DNA from: Leeuwenhoekiella aequorea
GTDB taxonomy: Bacteria > Bacteroidota > Bacteroidia > Flavobacteriales > Flavobacteriaceae
DNA length: 64,000 bases
Assembly: GCF_004104375.1 (NCBI RefSeq)
Contig: NZ_QOVM01000001.1
Span: 310,001 to 374,000 of the forward strand
Direction of reading: 5' to 3'
How positions within the stretch are numbered: position 1 is the stretch's first letter; each line of letters begins with the position of its first letter. This document shows, in pieces, positions 53,258 to 64,000 of the stretch. The notes beneath the pieces were generated by a model that saw nothing but the letters and a program-made list of their open reading frames with translations, was not told where the DNA came from and ran no database searches. A program made the position numbers and the translations under genes.

Positions 53258-55426
53258 TTACAACTTTATCTTGAATCCGCCATTGATCACAAATCCATCA
53301 ACTGGTGCATAGATATCTCTAAACTGAGGATCCTCTAAAGTCCCCGTATAAATAGTGTCAAATCGAGTTTGACGCGCGTCTAAGAAATTTTCAAAGTTTA
53401 AAAAGATTGAGAAAGTATCACCTAATTTTTTCTCTGTCATAAGTCCTACTATCCAATAAGACTGGCCTGTAGTCCCGTCGTTTAGCTTTTGCGGACTATA
53501 ATAATATCCTTCGAGACCTACCCAAAAATTATCGTGCTTTTCATACATCAAAACATTATTGAGTCTATGTGTAGCAACTAGTGGATATTGCTCGCGTTGC
53601 CCGTCATAGTGTTTATCTACATCTGCAAGAGTATAGCCTACAAAAAGTTTAAAATCTTTATAACTCCAGCGCATATTTGCTTCAATACCTTTAGTGTCTA
53701 GATGACCGTTAGGTTGAGTAAACTCATAAAACATATTTGAAGTACTGTTTAATAATAAAGGGTCATCTATCCTCGTGTAGAATAATAAAACATTAGTAGA
53801 TAAATTAAGATCATCTGTAATCGACCATTTATAATTACCATCAACATTGAAGCCTATTGAGCGCTCCGCATCTATATCATCAACAGATAAAGGCATTATA
53901 TTTTGAAATTGAAGTCGTTCTACATCTTCTGTAAATAAGGTAGGTGTTTTGTAACCGAGACCACCACCGGCGCGTAATGTAAATTGTGATGAAGGTTTAT
54001 ACATAACAGAAAAACGCGGAAGTAAATAAAACCCATAATCACTCTGGTAATCACCTCTCAACCCAGTTTCTAAAACTATATTTTCTTGTATATCCCATAT
54101 ATTCTGAACAAACATACCAACTGTATAATTAGAGTAGCTCAAATCCTGATTAGGGTCACCTCGATATTGATCAAAATTTTCAGTCCATAGATTAAGTCCG
54201 GCAACCCATTCTATATTTTTTTCAACTGCTGAAAGATTAAGCTCTGAAAATGATGAGATTTGTTTACCGGCAAAATTATAATCTGGTATTTCTATTTTAC
54301 GGTCAAAAAAGCTGATGCTGTTTTTTGCTTCAAGAGATAATTTTTCAGAAAAGTTGTGTCTCCCTAATAATTGAGTAGATAATCTATTTGTGATATTTTC
54401 TTCAAAATAACCACTTTCGGTAGTGTTTTCAATAAAATCTATAGAACCACCCAGGCGTTTTTCAGTAACATAATTAAAGCCTAAATTAAAATTTGTCTGA
54501 TCATTAAGATAAACATAGAATTTAGGATTTATGGTAAAACGATCAAACTTAGGTATCGCTGTAAGCCCTATGTCTGCCGGATCATAAGGAGTAGAAGTAT
54601 TATAACTGGCAAACACAGTTGCTCCTGTATTCTCATATTTTTCAGAATAAAACCCGCTAAGGTCTAATCCCAATGCAGAAGTAGCGTTAGCCATAAAACT
54701 TAACTCCCGCTCTTCTTGTGGCGTTCTAGAAATAAGATTTACTAATCCTGCAATCGCACCGCCTCCATATAATGTAGAAGAGGAACCTTTAATAACTTCC
54801 ACTTGTTTGAGGTCTAGCGGAGCTATTTGCATAAGGCTTAAACCTCCAGAATACCCTGAATATAAAGGTAAACCATCTCTTAAAAGTTGGGTGTACTTAC
54901 CGTCTAAACCTTGAATTCTAATACTGGAGTTGTAACTGGTAGCAGATGTCTGCTGTGTTTGAATACCCGTACTTTCATTAAGTAGCATACGTATGTCACC
55001 GGGCTTCATATTTCCTTTTTCTGACAGTTCTTCACCAGCAATAAATTCTAGTCGTGTCGGGGTATCTTGAAAGGTTCGTGAGCTACGTGTTGAGGTAAGA
55101 ATGATCTCCTCCATTTCTTCGTGAGATTCTTCAAGCTGAAAAATTTCATTAAGCTGATTATTCTCTAGTGGGAATGTACGTATGATTTCTAGTGTTTGAA
55201 ACCCCACATAACGTATTTCAATTTTAAATTGACCGTTAGGAATATTCTGTAATTGTACAGCGCCATCCATATCGGTAACGGCACCTTTGTTAAGTTTTTT
55301 TATAAATACGGAGACTCCATATAACGGTTCATTTGTTTCTGCTTCTTGTATGGTGGCTTTAAAAGTATTTTGCGCCAGAGTAGCGCTATAGACAAATAGC
55401 ACTAACATCAAAAGAGTATATTTCAA
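53258..55426 (-). CDS. TonB-dependent outer-membrane receptor
   Basis: A 722-residue outer-membrane transporter. Residues 1-18 are a signal peptide (ending TLAQN). A carboxypeptidase-regulatory-like domain follows (about 20-105, FKATIQEAETNEPLYGVSVFI). The plug is at about 115-235, with RLEFIAGEELSEKGNMKPGDI and ASSTLYGGGAIAGLVNLISR-like sequence, then the 22-strand barrel ending FVINGGFKIKL. No SusD-like partner gene is present, so a small-molecule or metal ligand is more likely than a glycan. It follows the small Cys-rich gene by 38 bases. Confidence 0.92.
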   Translation of the reverse strand: MKYTLLMLVLFVYSATLAQNTFKATIQEAETNEPLYGVSVFIKKLNKGAVTDMDGAVQLQNIPNGQFKIEIRYVGFQTLEIIRTFPLENNQLNEIFQLEESHEEMEEIILTSTRSSRTFQDTPTRLEFIAGEELSEKGNMKPGDIRMLLNESTGIQTQQTSATSYNSSIRIQGLDGKYTQLLRDGLPLYSGYSGGLSLMQIAPLDLKQVEVIKGSSSTLYGGGAIAGLVNLISRTPQEERELSFMANATSALGLDLSGFYSEKYENTGATVFASYNTSTPYDPADIGLTAIPKFDRFTINPKFYVYLNDQTNFNLGFNYVTEKRLGGSIDFIENTTESGYFEENITNRLSTQLLGRHNFSEKLSLEAKNSISFFDRKIEIPDYNFAGKQISSFSELNLSAVEKNIEWVAGLNLWTENFDQYRGDPNQDLSYSNYTVGMFVQNIWDIQENIVLETGLRGDYQSDYGFYLLPRFSVMYKPSSQFTLRAGGGLGYKTPTLFTEDVERLQFQNIMPLSVDDIDAERSIGFNVDGNYKWSITDDLNLSTNVLLFYTRIDDPLLLNSTSNMFYEFTQPNGHLDTKGIEANMRWSYKDFKLFVGYTLADVDKHYDGQREQYPLVATHRLNNVLMYEKHDNFWVGLEGYYYSPQKLNDGTTGQSYWIVGLMTEKKLGDTFSIFLNFENFLDARQTRFDTIYTGTLEDPQFRDIYAPVDGFVINGGFKIKL

Positions 55427-55464
55427 TGTGATAATCGCGTAAACGAAAAAAATCTGAATTTTAA

Positions 55465-55776
55465 TTATCCCTTTGGAGGCTTGAAAAACGAGGAATTAAA
55501 AGTATCCTGAATAGTCTGATTAATGGATAGTATTTTAGTAGATACTAGTTTATACTGAATAAGATTAAGTGAACCAGAATTAAGTACAATAAATCCTGAA
55601 CAGCTTCCGCAATTAAAAAAAGGCGAACAAGGTAAATGACTTTTTTCAGTATCATTTCCAGAAGCACTCCCGCAAAGTTCTGTGCTCTCTGAATCACATA
55701 CAGACTCGTCTGAGCAGCATGGCGTCACCGAAGCAAACAGCGTAATAAAAGAAAGTAGTATTACCAGAAATCTCAT
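55465..55776 (-). CDS. Small Cys-rich exported protein (DUF6660-like)
   Basis: A 103-residue protein with an N-terminal signal-like helix (MRFLVILLSFITLFASV) and seven Cys in the next 45 residues (C20, C21, C27, C35, C50, C56, C59), in patterns such as PCCSDES and CSPFFNCGSCSG. It resembles the small DUF6660 proteins found before TonB receptors in Bacteroidetes. A metal-binding or metal-sensing role in the periplasm is inferred from the Cys pattern and the neighbour. It is first in a two-gene unit with the receptor. Confidence 0.65.
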   Translation of the reverse strand: MRFLVILLSFITLFASVTPCCSDESVCDSESTELCGSASGNDTEKSHLPCSPFFNCGSCSGFIVLNSGSLNLIQYKLVSTKILSINQTIQDTFNSSFFKPPKG

Positions 55777-55929
55777 CGCGGCAAAAATACTATTAATGTA
55801 AATAAGGCAATACAGTTTTAATCTAAGAATTATCAGTTTTAATACAAATCTTATATCCTGATATTCTAATGAGATTTTAGAAAAGTGTTTAATTTCACTA
55901 ATCTTAATAAAATATTTCTAATTCATTTT

Positions 55930-57033
55930 ATGCACTTGAGTAAACCTTTTTATTATATCATCCTTATTTTACTAGCATTCGCAACGGGTTGCAAACAGAA
56001 CTCTGAGAAAAACACAGAGGAAACTGTTGAGATGCGTGAACCTTTAAAATTAGTAGTCATACAGCCAGATACAGTTGCTACTCCACAGGGGATGGTTTGG
56101 GTTTCTGGAGTAAACTTTACACAAGGAGCTGCAAGTTCAGACGTGCTGGCTTTGCCCCGAGAAAAGCCGGCTCATCCTGTTGCTGTAGATGGATTTTTTA
56201 TTGATCAAACCGAAGTAACAAATGCTCAGTTTAGAAAATTTGTTGAAGCAACCGGTTATATTACAGTGGCAGAGCAGCCTGTAGATTGGGAGCAAATGAA
56301 AAAGGAATTGCCTCCAGGAACTCCAAAACCGGCAGATAGTCTTTTACAGCCCGGATCACTAATTTTTAATAGATCTGTTGAAGGTGTGTCTGATTTAAGT
56401 AATTATGCGCAATGGTGGGAATGGAAAACAGGTGCCAACTGGAAACATCCTCAAGGCCCCGAATCTTCAATTATAAACAAAGATAATTATCCAGTAGTAC
56501 ATATTGCTTACACTGATGCTATGGCTTATTGTAGATGGGCTAACAGGCGATTACCTACAGAAGCAGAATGGGAAGCAGCCGCCTTCGGTAAACTACACGG
56601 GGGTGTTTATACCTGGGGAAATGATGAAAATAGTCTGGTAACTAAAGCAAATACTTGGCAAGGAGATTTCCCAAATAGAAATTCTGCTCAGGATGGTAAT
56701 TCTTATCTCGCTCCAGTTGCCGCCTATGACTCTAATTCTTTAGGGATATATGATATGGCAGGGAATGTTTGGGAGTTTACTGCAGATTGGTTTTCGGTGT
56801 CTTATTACGAAAGCCTACCATTAGATAAAATCACAGTAAATCCTCAGGGACCTTTAAAATCTTATAATCCTCAAAATCAATTTCAGCCTGAAAAAGTAAT
56901 TAAAGGTGGATCTTTTTTATGCGATAAGTCCTATTGCGCCAGTTATCGTATATCTGCTCGTATGGGGCAAACCATAGATTCTGCTTCAGACCATACCGGT
57001 TTTAGAACAGTGGTAGATATCACAATGCTATAA
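55930..57033 (+). CDS. FGE-sulfatase (formylglycine-generating enzyme) domain lipoprotein
   Basis: A 367-residue exported protein. From the ATG at 55930, MHLSKPFYYIILILLAFATGC is a lipoprotein signal with the lipidated Cys at residue 21; the ATG at 55885 only adds an atypical extension. The FGE domain has GFFIDQTEVTNAQFRKFVEATGY, CRWANRRLPTEAEWEAAA, GIYDMAGNVWEFTADW and the active-site segment GGSFLCDKSYCASYR. The two Cys in that segment are those needed in aerobic formylglycine-generating enzymes, so the site looks intact. Export as a lipoprotein is unusual for sulfatase maturation. No sulfatase gene is in the window. Confidence 0.85.
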   Translation: MHLSKPFYYIILILLAFATGCKQNSEKNTEETVEMREPLKLVVIQPDTVATPQGMVWVSGVNFTQGAASSDVLALPREKPAHPVAVDGFFIDQTEVTNAQFRKFVEATGYITVAEQPVDWEQMKKELPPGTPKPADSLLQPGSLIFNRSVEGVSDLSNYAQWWEWKTGANWKHPQGPESSIINKDNYPVVHIAYTDAMAYCRWANRRLPTEAEWEAAAFGKLHGGVYTWGNDENSLVTKANTWQGDFPNRNSAQDGNSYLAPVAAYDSNSLGIYDMAGNVWEFTADWFSVSYYESLPLDKITVNPQGPLKSYNPQNQFQPEKVIKGGSFLCDKSYCASYRISARMGQTIDSASDHTGFRTVVDITML

Positions 57034-57057
57034 TTCGCTGTAATTATTGGGTAATTA

Positions 57058-57073
57058 TTACCCTATCGGGAAT
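57058..57073 (+). promoter_or_regulatory. Putative sigma-54 enhancer (UAS) upstream of the 4HB-nhaA operon
   Basis: TTACCC-TATC-GGGAAT is a half-perfect inverted site, with a further palindrome GGGTAATTATTACCC (57049-57063) overlapping its left arm. Its first base is exactly 114 bases before the -24 TGG at 57172. A site of the same form and spacing precedes the promoter at 61872. Confidence 0.5.
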
Positions 57074-57171
57074 TAATAGACCAGCATTTATTTTTATAAA
57101 AATTATCTTTATGTAATTAAAATGCTATAAATCAAAGAAATAAATACGTTATAACGATGTAGTTGTATATT

Positions 57172-57187
57172 TGGAAAAGACTTTGCA
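57172..57187 (+). promoter_or_regulatory. Sigma-54 (-24/-12) promoter of the 4HB-nhaA-HK-RR operon
   Basis: TGGAAAAGACTTTGCA carries GG and GC with exactly ten bases between them, as required for sigma-54 recognition, and the TTTGCA -12 form. The expected start is near 57198, and the first gene begins at 57230. Because the operon encodes a sigma-54 activator, positive autoregulation is likely. Confidence 0.6.
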
Positions 57188-57229
57188 GAGCTTAGTTATG
57201 TATTCACATCCTTCAATCTCTTCAAATTT

Positions 57230-57835
57230 ATGTCTAGAAAAATATCTATATCAAAACGCATTAACGCAATACTTGCGTTGTTAATTGTATTTTTATTAGT
57301 TCTTGCTACTAACAGAATAGATCAACGAAATTTTGATGTTGCTCGGGAGTGTGTTACAGAAGTCTATAAAGATCGCGTTCTGGTACAAGGATATATATTT
57401 TCTATATCTAATGTAATTACAAACAAAAAACTTTCTTTAAAAGATTCTAGTAGTCAAAACTTTAATCCCAAAGAAAATGAACGCATTGATCAGCTTTTAG
57501 ACAATTTTGAAGCCACCAAGCTTACCATTTCTGAAGGTAATCATCTGAAAAAATTGAGGGAGAGTTTTGAGACCTTAACCAAACTTGAAGCACAGCAAAA
57601 TGTTACAAATTCCACAGATTTAAAGAAAAAAAAAGACACGACTCTTAAAGAAATGAGTGCTAGCTTAATAGATCTTTCAAAAATTCAAATTAGCGCCAGT
57701 AAAGATCTTACGCATAGTGCGCAGAAGTCACTTGAGGTAAGCGAACTTTTATCAAATCTTGAAATTATATTTTTAATAATTACAGGAATTGCAATTCAAT
57801 TTATTCTTTTCTATCGCGTACGGAAAACGAACTAA
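57230..57835 (+). CDS. Membrane protein with a four-helix-bundle sensor-like domain
   Basis: A 201-residue protein with a basic N-terminus, a first membrane helix (about residues 11-26), a long helical segment (27-170) rich in K, E and S, and a second membrane helix (about 176-195) before a short basic tail. This is the topology of the ligand-binding half of chemoreceptors (4HB_MCP), but no HAMP or signalling domain follows. It is the first gene of the putative sigma-54 operon. As the kinase encoded two genes on is soluble, this could be its membrane-side input. That link is inference. Confidence 0.65.
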   Translation: MSRKISISKRINAILALLIVFLLVLATNRIDQRNFDVARECVTEVYKDRVLVQGYIFSISNVITNKKLSLKDSSSQNFNPKENERIDQLLDNFEATKLTISEGNHLKKLRESFETLTKLEAQQNVTNSTDLKKKKDTTLKEMSASLIDLSKIQISASKDLTHSAQKSLEVSELLSNLEIIFLIITGIAIQFILFYRVRKTN

Positions 57836-57895
57836 AAAACTAATGTCAGTCATTTGATTATATCTATTTAGTGATTTGATTAAATGTTATTTAAT

Positions 57896-59197
57896 ATGGA
57901 TAAAAAAATACTTCGTAGTACCCCTTTTCAAAAATTCGTAAAAATTGAAGGCTTCGGTGGGATATTGTTATTGATAGCTACACTTACCGCCTTAATTTGG
58001 GCAAACTCTGCATTGGGAGCTAGTTACACTTCAATTTGGAATTATAAAGTGGGTATTAAAACAGAAAGTTTTGAACTTTATAAGCCGCTCTTGCTTTGGG
58101 TTAATGATGGTCTAATGACTGTCTTTTTCTTTTTAATAGGTCTAGAAATTAAACGGGAAGTACTTATAGGAGAATTGAACTCGTTTAAAAAAATGGCATT
58201 TCCATTATTTGGTGCAATAGGTGGAATGATCATACCAGTATTATTCTTCCTTATTCTCAATCAAAATGAATCTACATTTAAAGGTTGGGGAATTCCTATG
58301 GCTACAGATATTGCATTTTCACTAGCAATTTTAAATGCCTTGGGGAAAAGGGTGCCTTTAAGTCTCAAGATCTTTTTAACGGCATTTGCTATTGTAGATG
58401 ACCTGGGAGCAGTTCTTGTAATTGCAATTTTTTATAGTGGAACTATATCCATGTCTTTACTAGGAACGGCGATAGTACTATTACTTTTCTTGTATTTTCT
58501 TTCTTACAAAAGATATTATTCAAAATTTGTGCTGGTTACAATGGGTGTTATAATCTGGGTTTTGTTTTTAAAATCTGGAATTCATCCTACACTAGCAGGT
58601 GTTTTATTAGCGTTTGCAGTTCCTATAAGGCAATCTATAAATACCCCGGCATTTATAGAAAATCTTGTTACAATTACTAATAATATCAAGGATGCTTCTA
58701 TATCTAAAAAGCCTATCTTAAGTAAGGAGCAAATTCAGGAAATTGATGAACTTCAAGAATGGACCGGTAAATATCAATCTCCCTTACAGCACATGGAGCA
58801 TAGTCTTCACGGCTGGGTTGCTTATTTAATTATACCCTTATTTGCACTAGCTAATGCGGGAGTTGTAATTACCGGAGGAGACAATCTAGATACCATGTTG
58901 ATAATAAATATTGTGGTATGTCTGGTGCTGGGTAAGAGTATAGGTATTACATCAATAGTAGTACTGGCGCAAAAATTAAAACTTTTAACTGTACCTAAAG
59001 AAATATCCCTACAGCATATTATAGGCACTTCCTTTTTAGCAGGTATCGGTTTTACAATGGCAATTTTTGTGTCTAATCTGGCTTTTTCAGATGATCCTTC
59101 TTACAATCTGTCGGCAAAAATGGGAATTTTAATAGGCTCATTAATTGCAGCTATTTTAGGATATTTGATTTTGAGAATAAAACGTACAGCTAATTAA
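57896..59197 (+). CDS. nhaA: Na+/H+ antiporter NhaA
   Basis: A 433-residue inner-membrane antiporter with 12 helices, exchanging sodium for protons. The antiport Asp residues are in MATDIAFSLAILNALG and IVDDLGAVLVIAIFYSG. GLEIKREVLIGEL, GIHPTLAGVLLAFAVP and GIGFTMAIFVSNLAF are family signatures. An ATG at 57884 is also possible. It is located between the 4HB protein and the kinase, which suggests that ion or pH stress is the signal or output of the locus. Confidence 0.96.
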   Translation: MDKKILRSTPFQKFVKIEGFGGILLLIATLTALIWANSALGASYTSIWNYKVGIKTESFELYKPLLLWVNDGLMTVFFFLIGLEIKREVLIGELNSFKKMAFPLFGAIGGMIIPVLFFLILNQNESTFKGWGIPMATDIAFSLAILNALGKRVPLSLKIFLTAFAIVDDLGAVLVIAIFYSGTISMSLLGTAIVLLLFLYFLSYKRYYSKFVLVTMGVIIWVLFLKSGIHPTLAGVLLAFAVPIRQSINTPAFIENLVTITNNIKDASISKKPILSKEQIQEIDELQEWTGKYQSPLQHMEHSLHGWVAYLIIPLFALANAGVVITGGDNLDTMLIINIVVCLVLGKSIGITSIVVLAQKLKLLTVPKEISLQHIIGTSFLAGIGFTMAIFVSNLAFSDDPSYNLSAKMGILIGSLIAAILGYLILRIKRTAN

Positions 59198-59274
59198 ATG
59201 CTTTTTTCGAAGGTGTCTGCACTTAGAATTTTAGCAATTTTAATGGTAAGTTTTATATATTCAAATTAATCAAA

Positions 59275-60366
59275 ATGCTAATAAGGATGAGTAGTAGTCT
59301 TGAAGATGCGCTAAGAGAACGTATAAAAGAGCTTACCTGTTTGTATGAAGTGTCTTCAATTCTAGTTAATGCTAATCTTGATGAACAGAAAGAAACTTTT
59401 AAAGCTATAGCGGTATGTTTAAAAAAAGCTTTTCAGCACCCAGAATTCACTGAAATATCTATTAATCAAGAAAGTGCTCAAATTCATACCGGTAAAATCG
59501 ATATTAATAAATCAATAAGCGCGCCTATAATTTTGTTTAACAAACAAGAAGGTGAGTTGATTGCTTATATCACAAATCCCAAATTGGGTTTTTTACAAGA
59601 GGAACAACAACTTATAGATAATATAGCTCTTAAAATAGGTGATTTTTTAGAGCGGGTGGCCATTCGCCGCAGTGAAGCCCTATTAAAAAGGCAAATGGAG
59701 CACGCAGACAGGTTATCTATACTTGGAGAATTAACAGCTGGTATCGCTCACGAACTCAACACTCCCTTAGCAAATATTCTAGGATTTTCAGAGCTTCTTC
59801 AAGATAGTCTTTCAGAAGATAAAGGTGCTGTGGCAGACCTTGATAAAATAATCAAAAACGCTATTTTCTCACGGGAGGTGGTTAAAAAGTTGATGTTTTT
59901 TGCCTGTGCTATGCCGCAGGAAAAGATGAGTATAAATATTGTTCCGCATATAAATGATGCTATTAATTTACTGGATGCCACTTTTAGAAAGGAGAAGGTT
60001 AAGTACATTGTGAAAATTCAGGAAGAAGAAATGTATTTAAGGGCAGATACCGTACAGCTCACACAAATAATTTTCAACCTTATTATAAATGCTATTTATT
60101 TTTCTCCGGAAAATGGACTGGTAACTATTGAAGCTTTTCAAGATAAGAAAACTATAATTTTAAAGGTAATTGATGAAGGCCCAGGACTGTCTGATGAAAC
60201 TTTAGGTAAGATCTTTCAGCCATTTTTTACCACAAAGCCTACTGGAGCCGGTTCCGGTTTGGGACTTAGTGTGGTACACGGGATTGTTGCAAGTCATCAG
60301 GGAGCCATTGTTGCTTCTAATAATAGTGATAAAGGAGCTACATTTAAAGTAAGCTTACCTAAATAA
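59275..60366 (+). CDS. Soluble sensor histidine kinase
   Basis: A 363-residue kinase without membrane helices. Residues 9-125 form a GAF-like input region with SLEDALRERIKELTCLYEVSSIL. A coiled linker leads to the dimerisation domain with H159 in GELTAGIAHELNTPLANILGF. The ATPase domain has the N box IIFNLIINAIYFSPE, G1 VIDEGPGLSDE, F box IFQPFFTTKP and G2 GAGSGLGLSVVHGI. The kinase is of the HPK4/NtrB-like kind that pairs with sigma-54 activators. It is six bases from the response regulator gene, clearly its partner. Confidence 0.93.
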   Translation: MLIRMSSSLEDALRERIKELTCLYEVSSILVNANLDEQKETFKAIAVCLKKAFQHPEFTEISINQESAQIHTGKIDINKSISAPIILFNKQEGELIAYITNPKLGFLQEEQQLIDNIALKIGDFLERVAIRRSEALLKRQMEHADRLSILGELTAGIAHELNTPLANILGFSELLQDSLSEDKGAVADLDKIIKNAIFSREVVKKLMFFACAMPQEKMSINIVPHINDAINLLDATFRKEKVKYIVKIQEEEMYLRADTVQLTQIIFNLIINAIYFSPENGLVTIEAFQDKKTIILKVIDEGPGLSDETLGKIFQPFFTTKPTGAGSGLGLSVVHGIVASHQGAIVASNNSDKGATFKVSLPK

Positions 60367-60372
60367 TAAGTT

Positions 60373-61698
60373 ATGCAATTACGTAGAGAAAATATTCTTA
60401 TTGTAGATGACGATCTAAATATTTTAGAACTTTTACAGCGTCATTTAAATTCGTGGGATTATCATACCTATAGAGCGGTGTCAGTAAAAGAAGCTGTAAG
60501 TATTTTAAGCGATAGCTCTATAGATCTTTTAATAACAGATCTTAAAATGCCTGAGATTGATGGTTTTGAGCTCCTGAAATTTGTCTCTGAGCATTATCCA
60601 ACTATTCCGAAGCTTATTGTAACTGGTTTCCCGTCTGTACAAGACTCATTGGCAGCAATAAAATCTGGAGTCATCGAATATTTAACTAAACCTTTTACAA
60701 AAGAAGAGCTTAAAACTGCTGTTATTAAAGCGCTCCCAATACGTAATAATGAAGAACCTCCAAAGCCTTCAAATTTTAATAATGAAACGACCTTTAATGA
60801 AATCATAGGGAAATCTGAGAAAATTGAAGAGGTTTTACAGCTAATAGGTCGTGTAAAAAATAATAAGGCAACTGTGCTAGTAACTGGGGAGAGCGGCACT
60901 GGGAAAGAACTTGTCGCACGCGCAATACATTACAGTGGGAAATTTTCTAATGCACCATTTATCGCAGTAAATTGTGGAGGAATCCCCGAAAATCTTTTAG
61001 AAGCAGAGCTCTTTGGTTACATGAAAGGCGCATTTACAGGTGCCGATAAAAACAGAAAAGGAGCTTTTCAGGCAGCTCAGGGAGGCACCCTATTTTTAGA
61101 TGAAATAGGAAATGCATCTTTAGCCGTTCAAGTACGATTATTACGTGTATTACAAGAAAAAGAAGTCGTGCGTATAGGTTCGCAGATTCCTGAAAAAATA
61201 GATTTGAGGGTCGTTGCTGCAACTAATAGCAATTTGCACGAGATGATTAAACAACAAACTTTTAGGGAAGATTTATACTACCGTTTAAGTGTTGTAGAAA
61301 TAGATGTTCCGCCTTTGCGAGAACGGGTTGTTGATATCCCATTACTGGTAGATAAATTTTTATTCAAATATGGGATAGAATACAAGGATCGGTTTATAAA
61401 TATGGATACAGATGCTTTAGAAGTATTAAAGCGTTATCACTGGCCGGGAAATATTAGAGAGCTAGAAAATGTGATACAGCGTGCGGTAATTATGTGCGAC
61501 AAAAAGGTTAGTTTAAGCAATCTGCCAGATCATTTGAAATATACTTTAGATTTTCCTGATGAGGCATTGACAACTCTTGCCAACATGGAAAAGAACTATA
61601 TTTTAAAAGTTTTAAGAGCTACAGGGAATAATAAAACTAAGGCTGCTGAAATTCTTCAAATAACTAGAAAGACACTCCGGGAAAAACTCAAAGATTAA
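60373..61698 (+). CDS. Sigma-54-dependent response regulator, NtrC type
   Basis: A 441-residue regulator. The receiver domain (1-120) has IVDDDLNILELL and the phosphoacceptor D56 in DLLITDLKMPEIDG. The AAA+ domain (about 142-370) has Walker A TGESGTGKELVARA (171-184), the sigma-54 contact loop FGYMKGAFTGADKN (GAFTGA at 219-224) and GGTLFLDEIGNASL. The C-terminal Fis-type HTH is at about 400-440, ending KTKAAEILQITRKTLREKLKD. It is the last gene of the operon and its own promoters at 57172 and 61872 are likely targets. Confidence 0.95.
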   Translation: MQLRRENILIVDDDLNILELLQRHLNSWDYHTYRAVSVKEAVSILSDSSIDLLITDLKMPEIDGFELLKFVSEHYPTIPKLIVTGFPSVQDSLAAIKSGVIEYLTKPFTKEELKTAVIKALPIRNNEEPPKPSNFNNETTFNEIIGKSEKIEEVLQLIGRVKNNKATVLVTGESGTGKELVARAIHYSGKFSNAPFIAVNCGGIPENLLEAELFGYMKGAFTGADKNRKGAFQAAQGGTLFLDEIGNASLAVQVRLLRVLQEKEVVRIGSQIPEKIDLRVVAATNSNLHEMIKQQTFREDLYYRLSVVEIDVPPLRERVVDIPLLVDKFLFKYGIEYKDRFINMDTDALEVLKRYHWPGNIRELENVIQRAVIMCDKKVSLSNLPDHLKYTLDFPDEALTTLANMEKNYILKVLRATGNNKTKAAEILQITRKTLREKLKD

Positions 61699-61757
61699 AA
61701 TTTAATAAGAAGGGAGATTACAATGTGCCTTGTAGGCTACTATTCACTGGATAGTAT

Positions 61758-61773
61758 TTACCCGCCAGGGTAA
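61758..61773 (+). promoter_or_regulatory. Putative sigma-54 enhancer (UAS) upstream of the microprotein gene
   Basis: TTACCC-GCCA-GGGTAA is a perfect six-base inverted repeat with four bases between the arms. It begins exactly 114 bases before the -24 TGG at 61872, as at 57058/57172. It lies inside a larger inverted repeat, GTAGGCTA (61732-61739) and TAGCCTAC (61777-61784). No T-tract follows, so it is not a terminator. Confidence 0.55.
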
Positions 61774-61871
61774 TAATAGCCTACCTGCAAACTTTCACAA
61801 AAGTTTAGAAAAATACATAATGCACTGTATAACAGAATTTTGAAATTTGTATATGTTACTTGATTAGTAGT

Positions 61872-61887
61872 TGGCATTAGTATTGCC
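61872..61887 (+). promoter_or_regulatory. Sigma-54 (-24/-12) promoter upstream of the 45-residue microprotein gene
   Basis: TGGCATTAGTATTGCC has TGGCA at -24 and TTGC at -12 with the GG-to-GC distance of ten bases. The start would be near 61898, 18 bases before the ATG at 61916. It lies 173 bases after the stop of the sigma-54 activator gene. Confidence 0.65.
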
Positions 61888-61915: not shown

Positions 61916-62053
61916 ATGAAAATTAATTCATTTAATATTTGCCCGAGTTGCGTTCATATTACAACCTGCGTATTAACTATGCAAAAAGAGCTTGTATGGT
62001 CTTGCAGTGAATATGACTACGCAACAACTTTAAACGATGTTCAACTAGATAAA
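61916..62053 (+). CDS. 45-residue Cys-rich microprotein under a sigma-54 promoter
   Basis: A short frame beginning MKINSFNICPSCVHITTCVL and ending NDVSTR. It carries four Cys (C9, C12, C18 and C30) and H14, a CPSC-x-H-x3-C pattern like a small zinc or iron site. I recall similar unnamed short proteins in flavobacteria but cannot name a family. It has the right distance from a -24/-12 promoter and an A/T-rich leader, which supports expression. It is followed after 48 bases by a secreted protein gene and then gdhA. The function is unknown; a stress or metal-related regulator or adaptor is speculation. Confidence 0.6.
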
Positions 62054-62070
62054 AATCAAGAGAACTAAGT

Positions 62071-62101: not shown

Positions 62102-62464
62102 ATGAAAGCTATTTTATTTACCGTAATCCTCGCTCTGGGAACTTTGAATATTCAAGCTCAGAGAAATTGTGAAACTCCAAAAGTAAAAACCGGGGATATT
62201 TTAAAATTATCTGGAGCAACAAACACGCAATTTGAGCATATAAATTTTCCGAAGAAAAATTTTATTATAAAAAAAGGAGGGATTGTTAATTACAAAAAAC
62301 TACACAACAAAGAGGTTGAAGTGACAGATATCGAAGTTGTTGAAGGTTGTATTTCTAAAATTGACGTTAAACTTGCAGATGGATCAAAGTTTTTCAATGC
62401 AGTTGAAGTAGTTAGCATAAATTTGGAGGGTGCTTTATCATCTGGTGAAGTAACCTTGAAATAA
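62102..62464 (+). CDS. Small secreted protein, unknown function
   Basis: A 120-residue protein starting MKAILFTVILALGTLNIQAQ, a signal peptide with cleavage after IQAQ. The frame is open to 62075, but the nine residues before this ATG do not suit a signal peptide. The mature part is a short beta-rich, basic domain with two Cys (in RNCETPK and EGCISK), probably a disulfide, and motifs such as KTGDILKLSGATNTQFEH. I do not recognise the family. It ends 10 bases before gdhA, so the two are very likely cotranscribed. Confidence 0.6.
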   Translation: MKAILFTVILALGTLNIQAQRNCETPKVKTGDILKLSGATNTQFEHINFPKKNFIIKKGGIVNYKKLHNKEVEVTDIEVVEGCISKIDVKLADGSKFFNAVEVVSINLEGALSSGEVTLK

Positions 62465-63802: not shown

Positions 63803-64000
63803 GTGAAATACGGAAGCTTAATTTTAGAGAAGAAAGAATACGTTCTTTTAAAACGTATTATGAACATCTCCTATCATTTAGACGATCCTATCATACGCAA
63901 TTCGATTAATAAATTGAATGAAGAATTACAACTGGCCATGATCTGCGAGGATACAGAAATCCCCGCAGATGTGGTTCGGTTTAATAGTAAAGTCACTATA
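63803..64000 (+). CDS. GreA/GreB/Rnk-like protein (partial, runs off the right edge)
   Basis: A GTG-initiated frame, 66 codons long inside the window and open at the edge. It begins with KYGSLILEKKEYVLLKRI and contains a coiled, acidic helical hairpin region (LDDPIIRNSINKLNEELQLAMI), then EIPADVVRFNSKVTI. The last part matches the start of the Rnk/GreA C-terminal domain (VVRFNSxVTV-type motif). The family binds RNA polymerase or regulates nucleotide pools. The preceding ATG at 63788 is followed by a stop two codons later, so GTG at 63803 is the only usable start seen. Confidence 0.7.
   Translation, partial: MKYGSLILEKKEYVLLKRIMNISYHLDDPIIRNSINKLNEELQLAMICEDTEIPADVVRFNSKVTI

What the first reader, a model, noticed from the sequence alone, without database searches (positions are those of the whole stretch)
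57058..61887. Two sigma-54 promoters with identically placed enhancer sites flank an activator operon
Seen: TGGAAAAGACTTTGCA at 57172 and TGGCATTAGTATTGCC at 61872 both have the GG/GC spacing of sigma-54 promoters. Each is preceded by TTACCC-N4-GGG, at 57058 and at 61758. In both cases the first base of the site is exactly 114 bases upstream of the TGG. Known: sigma-54 activators bind inverted-repeat enhancers about 100-150 bases upstream. Inference: the NtrC-type regulator encoded at 60373 binds both sites, controlling its own operon and the genes after it. The equal spacing is unlikely to be chance and defines a small regulon.
Basis: partly seen in the sequence, partly recalled or inferred. 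Interest (0 to 1): 0.85.

Follow-up and report, generated by a model that had tools for sequence, protein, structure and literature searches.

The report
Flavobacterial sigma-54 stress switch with enhancers
A two-component sigma-54 regulator in marine flavobacteria appears to switch on its own operon and the operon next door through a DNA enhancer kept at an almost fixed distance from the promoter in many species; it looks like a solid, so far undescribed member of a well-known kind of regulatory system.

Summary
In 59 orthologous kinase-regulator loci, enhancers picked without promoter information have a strict -24/-12 promoter 40-400 bases downstream in 40; the distance is 112-118 in 39 of those 40. 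The enhancer is larger than reported: about 36 bp, four half-sites 10 bp apart. rpoN is present. Where genes are rearranged, the module stays with its target gene. Targets: an upstream operon (four-helix protein, NhaA, kinase, regulator) and a downstream operon (Cys4 mini-protein, small protein, glutamate dehydrogenase, GreA/GreB-like factor). Against: the upstream, autoregulatory promoter is weaker and less conserved, 5 of 59 loci gave no module even in a relaxed scan, and the window's sites are below-average members. Binding, transcript starts and signal are untested. It is a new local sigma-54 regulon of a known kind; the near-fixed spacing is the unusual part.

The parts
57048..57083 (+). 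upstream enhancer array (four half-sites, contains TTACCCTATCGGG at 57058)
   Evidence: best hit in window of a profile not trained on the window; second of two own-genome hits of R1; kept in nearest relative L275
57172..57187 (+). sigma-54-type -24/-12 element TGGAAAAGACTTTGCA before the regulator operon
   Evidence: GG/GC spacing; same element TGGAAAAGTCTTTGCA in L275 at d=115; TGG-N9-TGC before the same gene in 9 of 12 genus loci
57230..57835 (+). 201-aa four-helix-bundle-like protein with hydrophobic ends (read by eye), no output domain
   Evidence: Pfam 4HB_MCP_1 E 0.0016, below the curated cut-off; same cluster in 16 of 59 loci; alignment A4
57884..59197 (+). NhaA Na+/H+ antiporter
   Evidence: PF06965 E 3e-137; TIGR00773 over cut-off
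59275..60366 (+). histidine kinase (HisKA + HATPase_c); first ~140 residues match no Pfam family at E <= 0.1
   Evidence: match at E <= 1e-40 in 33 of 149 family genomes
60373..61698 (+). NtrC-type response regulator: receiver, sigma-54 AAA+, Fis-type HTH, GAFTGA
   Evidence: residues R432, K433, T434, K438 of the HTH invariant in 59 orthologues
61748..61783 (+). downstream enhancer array (contains the perfect palindrome TTACCC-GCCA-GGGTAA at 61758)
61872..61887 (+). sigma-54-type -24/-12 element TGGCATTAGTATTGCC
   Evidence: strict consensus TGGYAYN5TTGY at 112-118 from the enhancer in 39 of the 40 loci that gave both elements, of 59 examined
61916..62068 (+). 50-aa Cys4 mini-protein, first gene of the downstream operon
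   Evidence: invariant C9, C12, C18, S29, C30 in 25 aligned of 41 available; 44 of 59 loci; no Pfam match
62105..62464 (+). 119-aa protein with signal-peptide-like N-terminus (read by eye)
   Evidence: no Pfam match; 14 of 59 loci; has its own module where relocated in L045-L047
62475..63788 (+). glutamate dehydrogenase
   Evidence: PF00208/PF02812; 51 of 59 loci
63803..64000 (+). start of a 138-aa GreA/GreB C-terminal-domain protein (runs past the window)
   Evidence: PF01272 E 2e-13 on the full gene in L262; cluster in 53 of 59 loci

Best explanation
A phosphorylated NtrC-type regulator (60373), paired with the kinase at 59275, binds as adjacent dimers to a four-half-site enhancer (GGTA-N6-TACC-N6-GGTA-N6-TACC). 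It contacts sigma-54 RNA polymerase at a -24/-12 promoter 114 bp downstream by DNA looping. One copy drives its own operon (four-helix protein, NhaA, kinase, regulator). The second drives the adjacent operon (Cys4 mini-protein, 119-aa protein, glutamate dehydrogenase, GreA/GreB-like factor and two further small proteins). It is a local, positively autoregulated stress or energy-status switch. Shown: the sequence elements, their conservation and spacing, rpoN, and regulator architecture. Inferred: binding, activation, autoregulation. Guess: the inducing signal.
For: Spacing 112-118 in 39 of the 40 loci (of 59) that gave both elements, with enhancers chosen in the held-out half without promoter information. 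At other spacings the count is 0-4 per 10-bp bin against 62 at 110-119 (that matrix was trained on 44 of these loci). That profile R2 hits 11 of 31 kinase-positive genomes at E <= 0.01, all 11 at the kinase locus, and 0 of 33 kinase-negative genomes. Modules go with the target gene when genes move: L125, L127, L128, L280 and L285, L280 upstream array at d=112. Nearest relative has both modules. Regulator has receiver, AAA+, HTH and GAFTGA; rpoN present.
Against: R2 gave no hit at E <= 0.1 for the window's genome in the filtered whole-genome search, and for its nearest relative G155 only a hit elsewhere, so these sites are weak members of the family. The upstream promoter departs from TGGCAY. 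Outside the genus 11 of the 59 loci carry an array upstream of the operon or kinase, but none of them has a canonical TGG-N9-TGC at about 114. Within the genus 4 of the 10 upstream promoters sit at 103-104 rather than 112-115, several of those arrays score low, and for two the best register was 122. Three other strong AAA+ activators are encoded in the genome, so the identity of the binder rests on synteny and co-occurrence. 19 of 59 loci did not give a site plus a strict promoter; 5 of 59 gave no pair in the relaxed scan (L069, L132, L142, L146, L150).
Confidence: 0.9

Rival explanations
1. The palindrome after the regulator's stop codon is an RNA hairpin (terminator or processing signal), and its spacing to the promoter is incidental.
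For: In most orthologues the array begins within about 25 bases after the regulator stop and its arms are complementary; several outer-arm pairs show more complementary pairs than expected from column frequencies (for example pair 7-34, 0.67 against 0.42).
Against: The array lies away from the stop codon and with the target promoter in L125, L127, L128, L280 and L285. It also lies upstream of the first gene of the regulator operon. The inner arms show no excess pairing over column frequencies (pair 13-28 0.82 against 0.81; pair 18-23 0.96 against 0.96). A terminator-like hairpin distinct from the array was found 30-150 bases after the stop in 31 of 59 loci (shuffled control 11).
Confidence: 0.04
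2. The sites are enhancers of a different activator, and the local regulator controls other genes.
For: Four strong sigma-54 AAA+ proteins (this one included) are encoded in the genome.
Against: An array was found after this kinase-regulator pair in 55 of 59 loci (matrix trained on 44 of them). R2 hits at E <= 0.01 occur in kinase-positive genomes (11 of 31) and in none of 33 kinase-negative ones. The regulator's HTH is conserved along with the site.
Confidence: 0.05
3. Only the downstream module is functional; the upstream site and promoter are a degenerate or chance pair, so there is no autoregulation.
For: Weak -24 element; outside the genus the upstream array lacks a canonical promoter at 114 in all 11 loci where an array was found; 2 of 12 genus loci have no such promoter near the gene.
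Against: The upstream array is the best hit of an independent profile in the window. Array, promoter and spacing are kept in L275; weaker arrays lie at 112-114 in L282-L284 and at 112 in the inverted L280 copy.
Confidence: 0.2

Closest known systems
NtrC-type two-component sigma-54 activators in general (NtrC, ZraR, AtoC)
   Same: Receiver-AAA+-Fis HTH architecture, GAFTGA, paired kinase, inverted-repeat enhancer upstream of -24/-12
   Different: Below the curated NCBIfam cut-offs for ntrC (403.9 of 558.6), AtoC (401.5 of 714) and ZraR (384.6 of 760); target genes differ, and site sequences of those regulators were not compared here
Sigma-54 regulome of Desulfovibrio vulgaris (PMC4641369; passages and section 13 read)
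   Same: Several regulators are co-localised with predicted target operons that have conserved sigma-54 promoters and a predicted site, one palindromic
   Different: There the site-to-promoter distance varies: the biggest fraction within 100 nt, four cases over 300; here it is nearly fixed
NmpR of Myxococcus xanthus (PMC11841059; passages read)
   Same: NtrC-like regulator, two adjacent inverted-repeat sites with a preferred spacing, a universal stress protein among the targets
   Different: Different site (GCGCA-N5-TGCGC) and a multi-component relay linked to oxygen; homology of the proteins was not tested here

Membership tests
NtrC-type two-component sigma-54 activators | receiver + sigma-54 AAA+ + Fis-type HTH in one protein | tested here: met
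   PF00072, PF00158, PF02954 all over cut-off
NtrC-type two-component sigma-54 activators | GAFTGA loop that contacts sigma-54 | tested here: met
   KGAFTGA; role of the loop recalled
NtrC-type two-component sigma-54 activators | rpoN in the genome | tested here: met
   one Sigma54_DBD match, E 8.8e-53
NtrC-type two-component sigma-54 activators | -24/-12 promoter (GG-N10-GC) at the target | tested here: met
   both promoters in the sequence; conserved downstream
NtrC-type two-component sigma-54 activators | regulator binds the enhancer and activates transcription | not testable with these tools
   needs footprint and transcription assay
NtrC (NR-I) equivalog | score over the curated NCBIfam cut-off | tested here: not met
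   403.9 of 558.6 bits
ZraR equivalog | score over the curated NCBIfam cut-off | tested here: not met
   384.6 of 760 bits
AtoC equivalog | score over the curated NCBIfam cut-off | tested here: not met
   401.5 of 714 bits

The most novel reading that the evidence does not exclude
A Flavobacteriaceae stress regulon in which the sigma-54 enhancer works only at a ruler-like, helically phased distance (112-118 bp, or about one turn less at some upstream promoters) without a recognisable IHF bend, and in which a separate four-helix membrane protein serves as a detached sensor for a kinase that has no recognised sensor domain. If so, sigma-54 enhancers are not generally position-tolerant in this group.
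Probability: 0.35. Interest if true: 0.6.

Novelty: new member of a known kind. Interest (0 to 1): 0.48.

Why it matters
It supplies a concrete sigma-54 enhancer motif, with a candidate regulator and targets, for Flavobacteriaceae, a group for which the nine paper searches made here found no such system described. It gives orphan genes (the Cys4 mini-protein, two proteins of 126 and 141 aa, the 119-aa protein) a regulatory context beside glutamate dehydrogenase, GreA/GreB-like factors, Usp and a Dps-like protein. The near-constant spacing across many genera is a natural experiment on whether sigma-54 enhancers are distance-tolerant (an NtrC enhancer is cited as working from up to 15 kb; PMC4641369 section 13), and it can be tested with spacer insertions.

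Tried and rejected
Pattern GGGWAA-N93..103-TGGYAYN5TTGY across 33 kinase-positive and 33 kinase-negative genomes: 22 and 10 genomes matched; 10 of the 26 matches in kinase-positive genomes lie at the kinase locus, and the other 16 come at a rate like that of the kinase-negative genomes (13), so I read them as chance (I did not check each one's context). A fixed IHF site in the spacer: 1 of 41 loci, with a recalled consensus. A terminator hairpin in the window's own spacer: none by my criteria, nor by the consensus scan at that place. My first promoter regex had the wrong spacing and was replaced. Rejected: RNA hairpin, chance, different activator, for the reasons under rivals. Literature: nine searches found no description of this system; four papers were looked into by passages (PMC12316311, PMC4641369 with its section 13, PMC3162934, PMC11841059), the rest seen only as listings; most subscription journals are not in the library.

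Rows dropped: A1 used 45 of 55 sites (L045 and L047 as near-duplicates, plus eight others, mostly lower-scoring, by my choice); A5 used 25 of 27 sites of its set (again without L045 and L047); A2 used 25 of 41 mini-proteins; A3 used 54 of 58 kinases. In one search, L138 and L151 were counted twice in the 30 of 33 (two registers of one site). The cross-validation was seeded with the consensus TTWCCCNNNNGGGWAA, which I had chosen after seeing all loci.
Full report
WHAT IS THERE. The two promoters and two enhancer cores are exactly as described, 114 bases apart in both cases. Upstream operon: four-helix protein, NhaA, histidine kinase, NtrC-type regulator, with gaps of 48, 77 and 6 bases (coordinates; annotation). 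Downstream operon: 50-aa Cys4 mini-protein, 119-aa protein, glutamate dehydrogenase, then (partly past the window, read in L262) a 138-aa protein with a GreA/GreB C-terminal domain and two small proteins of 141 and 126 aa without Pfam match. That each set is one transcript is inferred from gap lengths. The genome holds one rpoN and four strong sigma-54 AAA+ activators (E below 1e-60). A genus-mate, G144, has a contig of the same length (149,682) as that of Leeuwenhoekiella polynyae locus L045.

IS IT MORE THAN CHANCE. Taken alone, neither element is rare: the 13-mer has 13 genome matches against 19 for its reversed control, and loose -24/-12 matches are not enriched in the window. I therefore tested conservation. 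The kinase has a match at E <= 1e-40 in 33 of 149 family genomes, the window's own included, and 29 loci with kinase identity of 58% or more came from the species collection (80 loci were returned, the other 51 at 35% or less were not used). Three of the 29 lie on contigs of the same length as three of the 33, so together there are 59 distinct loci with the window; in all 59 the regulator directly follows the kinase.

SPACING. I trained an enhancer matrix on one half of the loci using only sequence near the regulator's stop codon, with no promoter information (seeded with a consensus I had chosen after looking at the loci), and applied it to the other half, in both directions. In 9 of 59 loci no site passed; in 10 a site passed without a strict promoter (TGGYAYN5TTGY) 40-400 bases downstream; in 40 both were present. 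In 39 of these 40 the distance was 112-118; the other was 126. The strict promoter occurs 59 times in 1.94 million strand-bases of these loci, so coincidence is not a reasonable explanation. A joint matrix gives 62 pairs at 110-119 and 0-4 in each of nine other 10-bp bins (that matrix was trained on 44 of these loci, so this figure is only supporting). In that scan 5 of 59 loci (L069, L132, L142, L146, L150) gave no pair.

SHAPE OF THE ENHANCER. The aligned sites (A1) show a 36-bp pseudo-palindrome, majority consensus TGGTACATTTTTACnCAnnTGGGTAATTATGTACCA: four half-sites of alternating orientation whose starts are 10 bp apart. The outer pair was not used to select sites, yet its G (41 of 44) and C (40 of 44) are nearly invariant. 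Two adjacent dimers on one face of the helix is the simplest reading (inference). Inner-arm pairs show no covariation beyond column frequencies, while some outer-arm pairs do show an excess; the excess may be lineage drift of the half-site.

Profile R2, from 25 sites of other genomes (one a genus-mate), ranks 57047-57083 (E 0.0021) and 61747-61777 (E 0.011) first and second in the window. Profile R1, which included the 61746 site, finds exactly these two places at E <= 0.1 in the own genome. In the whole-genome test on genomes outside its training set R2 hit 11 of 31 kinase-positive genomes at E <= 0.01, all 11 at the kinase locus, and 0 of 33 kinase-negative genomes (with over 40 genomes the tool used stricter filters and scored 103 candidates a genome). 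Against this, R2 did not report the window's own genome at E <= 0.1 in that search, so the window's sites are below-average members. With R1 the kinase-negative genomes gave one hit at E 0.004 and the rest above 0.028.

THE MODULE FOLLOWS THE TARGET. In L125, L127 and L128 the mini-protein gene lies farther from the regulator and the array-promoter pair lies with it, 367-1327 bases from the stop. In L045-L047 the 119-aa gene sits downstream of glutamate dehydrogenase and carries its own pair at 113. In L280 and L285 the four-helix/NhaA operon is inverted and away from the kinase, with an array upstream of it, and the mini-protein has its own array and promoter at 116. In L067, L139, L144 and L145 the promoter directly precedes the GreA/GreB-like gene (read by eye). 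In L048 a pair at 114 precedes a ferritin/Dps-like gene. In L263 an array lies between a gene that looks homologous to that one (by eye) and a FUSC-family gene, with a similar promoter on the Dps side at about 113, read by eye. This argues for a DNA element serving promoters, not an RNA element of the regulator transcript.

THE UPSTREAM (AUTOREGULATORY) MODULE. It is the less certain half. 12 of 13 genus genomes have the kinase. Of the 12 loci, 9 have TGG-N9-TGC and one TGG-N9-TGA, 44-68 bases before the four-helix gene; L279 and L285 have none there. Array distances are 112-115 in 6 of these 10 and 103-104 in 4 (about one helical turn less); for two of the latter the best-scoring register was 122, and several arrays score low. 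L275, the nearest relative, keeps array, promoter sequence and distance (115). Outside the genus 11 loci have an array upstream of the operon or kinase, but none has a canonical promoter at 114; three have GGGCAT-N5-TTGA-like elements at 112.

CONSERVED CONTEXT. Within the scanned stretch (4.6 kb before the kinase to 5.5 kb after the regulator, where the contig allows) of 59 loci, clusters were found in: GreA/GreB-like 53, glutamate dehydrogenase 51, 129-aa-type orphans 48, Cys4 mini-protein 44, Usp 23, four-helix protein 16, 119-aa protein 14, NhaA 7 (Pfam). These are lower bounds, since divergent members may not cluster. The content suggests a stress, ion or energy-status response (inference); the signal is unknown. 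The four-helix gene lies directly before the kinase in several loci, for example L048, L050 and L065, and the kinase has no recognised sensor domain, so a split sensor is plausible but untested.

MEMBERSHIP AND NOVELTY. The regulator is an NtrC-type sigma-54 activator by architecture, but not an NtrC, AtoC or ZraR equivalog by curated cut-offs. Co-localised control by such regulators is described for Desulfovibrio (PMC4641369, passages and section 13), and paired sites with preferred spacing for NmpR (PMC11841059, passages). A survey of sigma-54 regulons (PMC12316311, passages) covers Flavobacteriia, but the passages shown do not describe this system; I did not read it whole. It is a new member of a known kind; the unusual feature is the near-fixed enhancer distance across genera.

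Noticed in passing
61916-62068 and orthologues (A2): 50-70-aa mini-protein with four invariant cysteines (CxxC-x5-C-x11-C) and an SCSE motif at the last one, no Pfam match, 44 of 59 loci; a candidate small metal-binding protein.
   Followed up: partly
spacer between enhancer and promoter in orthologues, about -53 from the -24 element: A hairpin AACCCTT...AAGGGTT sits at an almost fixed place (-51 to -54) in 11 of the 40 loci printed, so the regulator operon's terminator may lie inside the enhancer-promoter loop; the window itself has no clear copy.
   Followed up: partly
L048:6870-7537 and L263:1126-1582: The same enhancer lies before ferritin/Dps-like genes, in one case between such a gene and a FUSC-family gene, so the regulon reaches further in some genera.
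   Followed up: partly
57230-57835: Stand-alone four-helix-bundle protein weakly resembling the sensory module of chemoreceptors but with no output domain, directly before the kinase gene in several loci.
   Followed up: partly
L262:6804-7220 and L262:8377-8874: Two proteins with a GreA/GreB C-terminal domain are encoded about 1 kb apart just past the window.
   Followed up: no
53258-57033: A TonB-dependent receptor, a DUF6660-like small protein (below cut-off) and an FGE-sulfatase-domain protein lie upstream; L275 keeps the same order.
   Followed up: no
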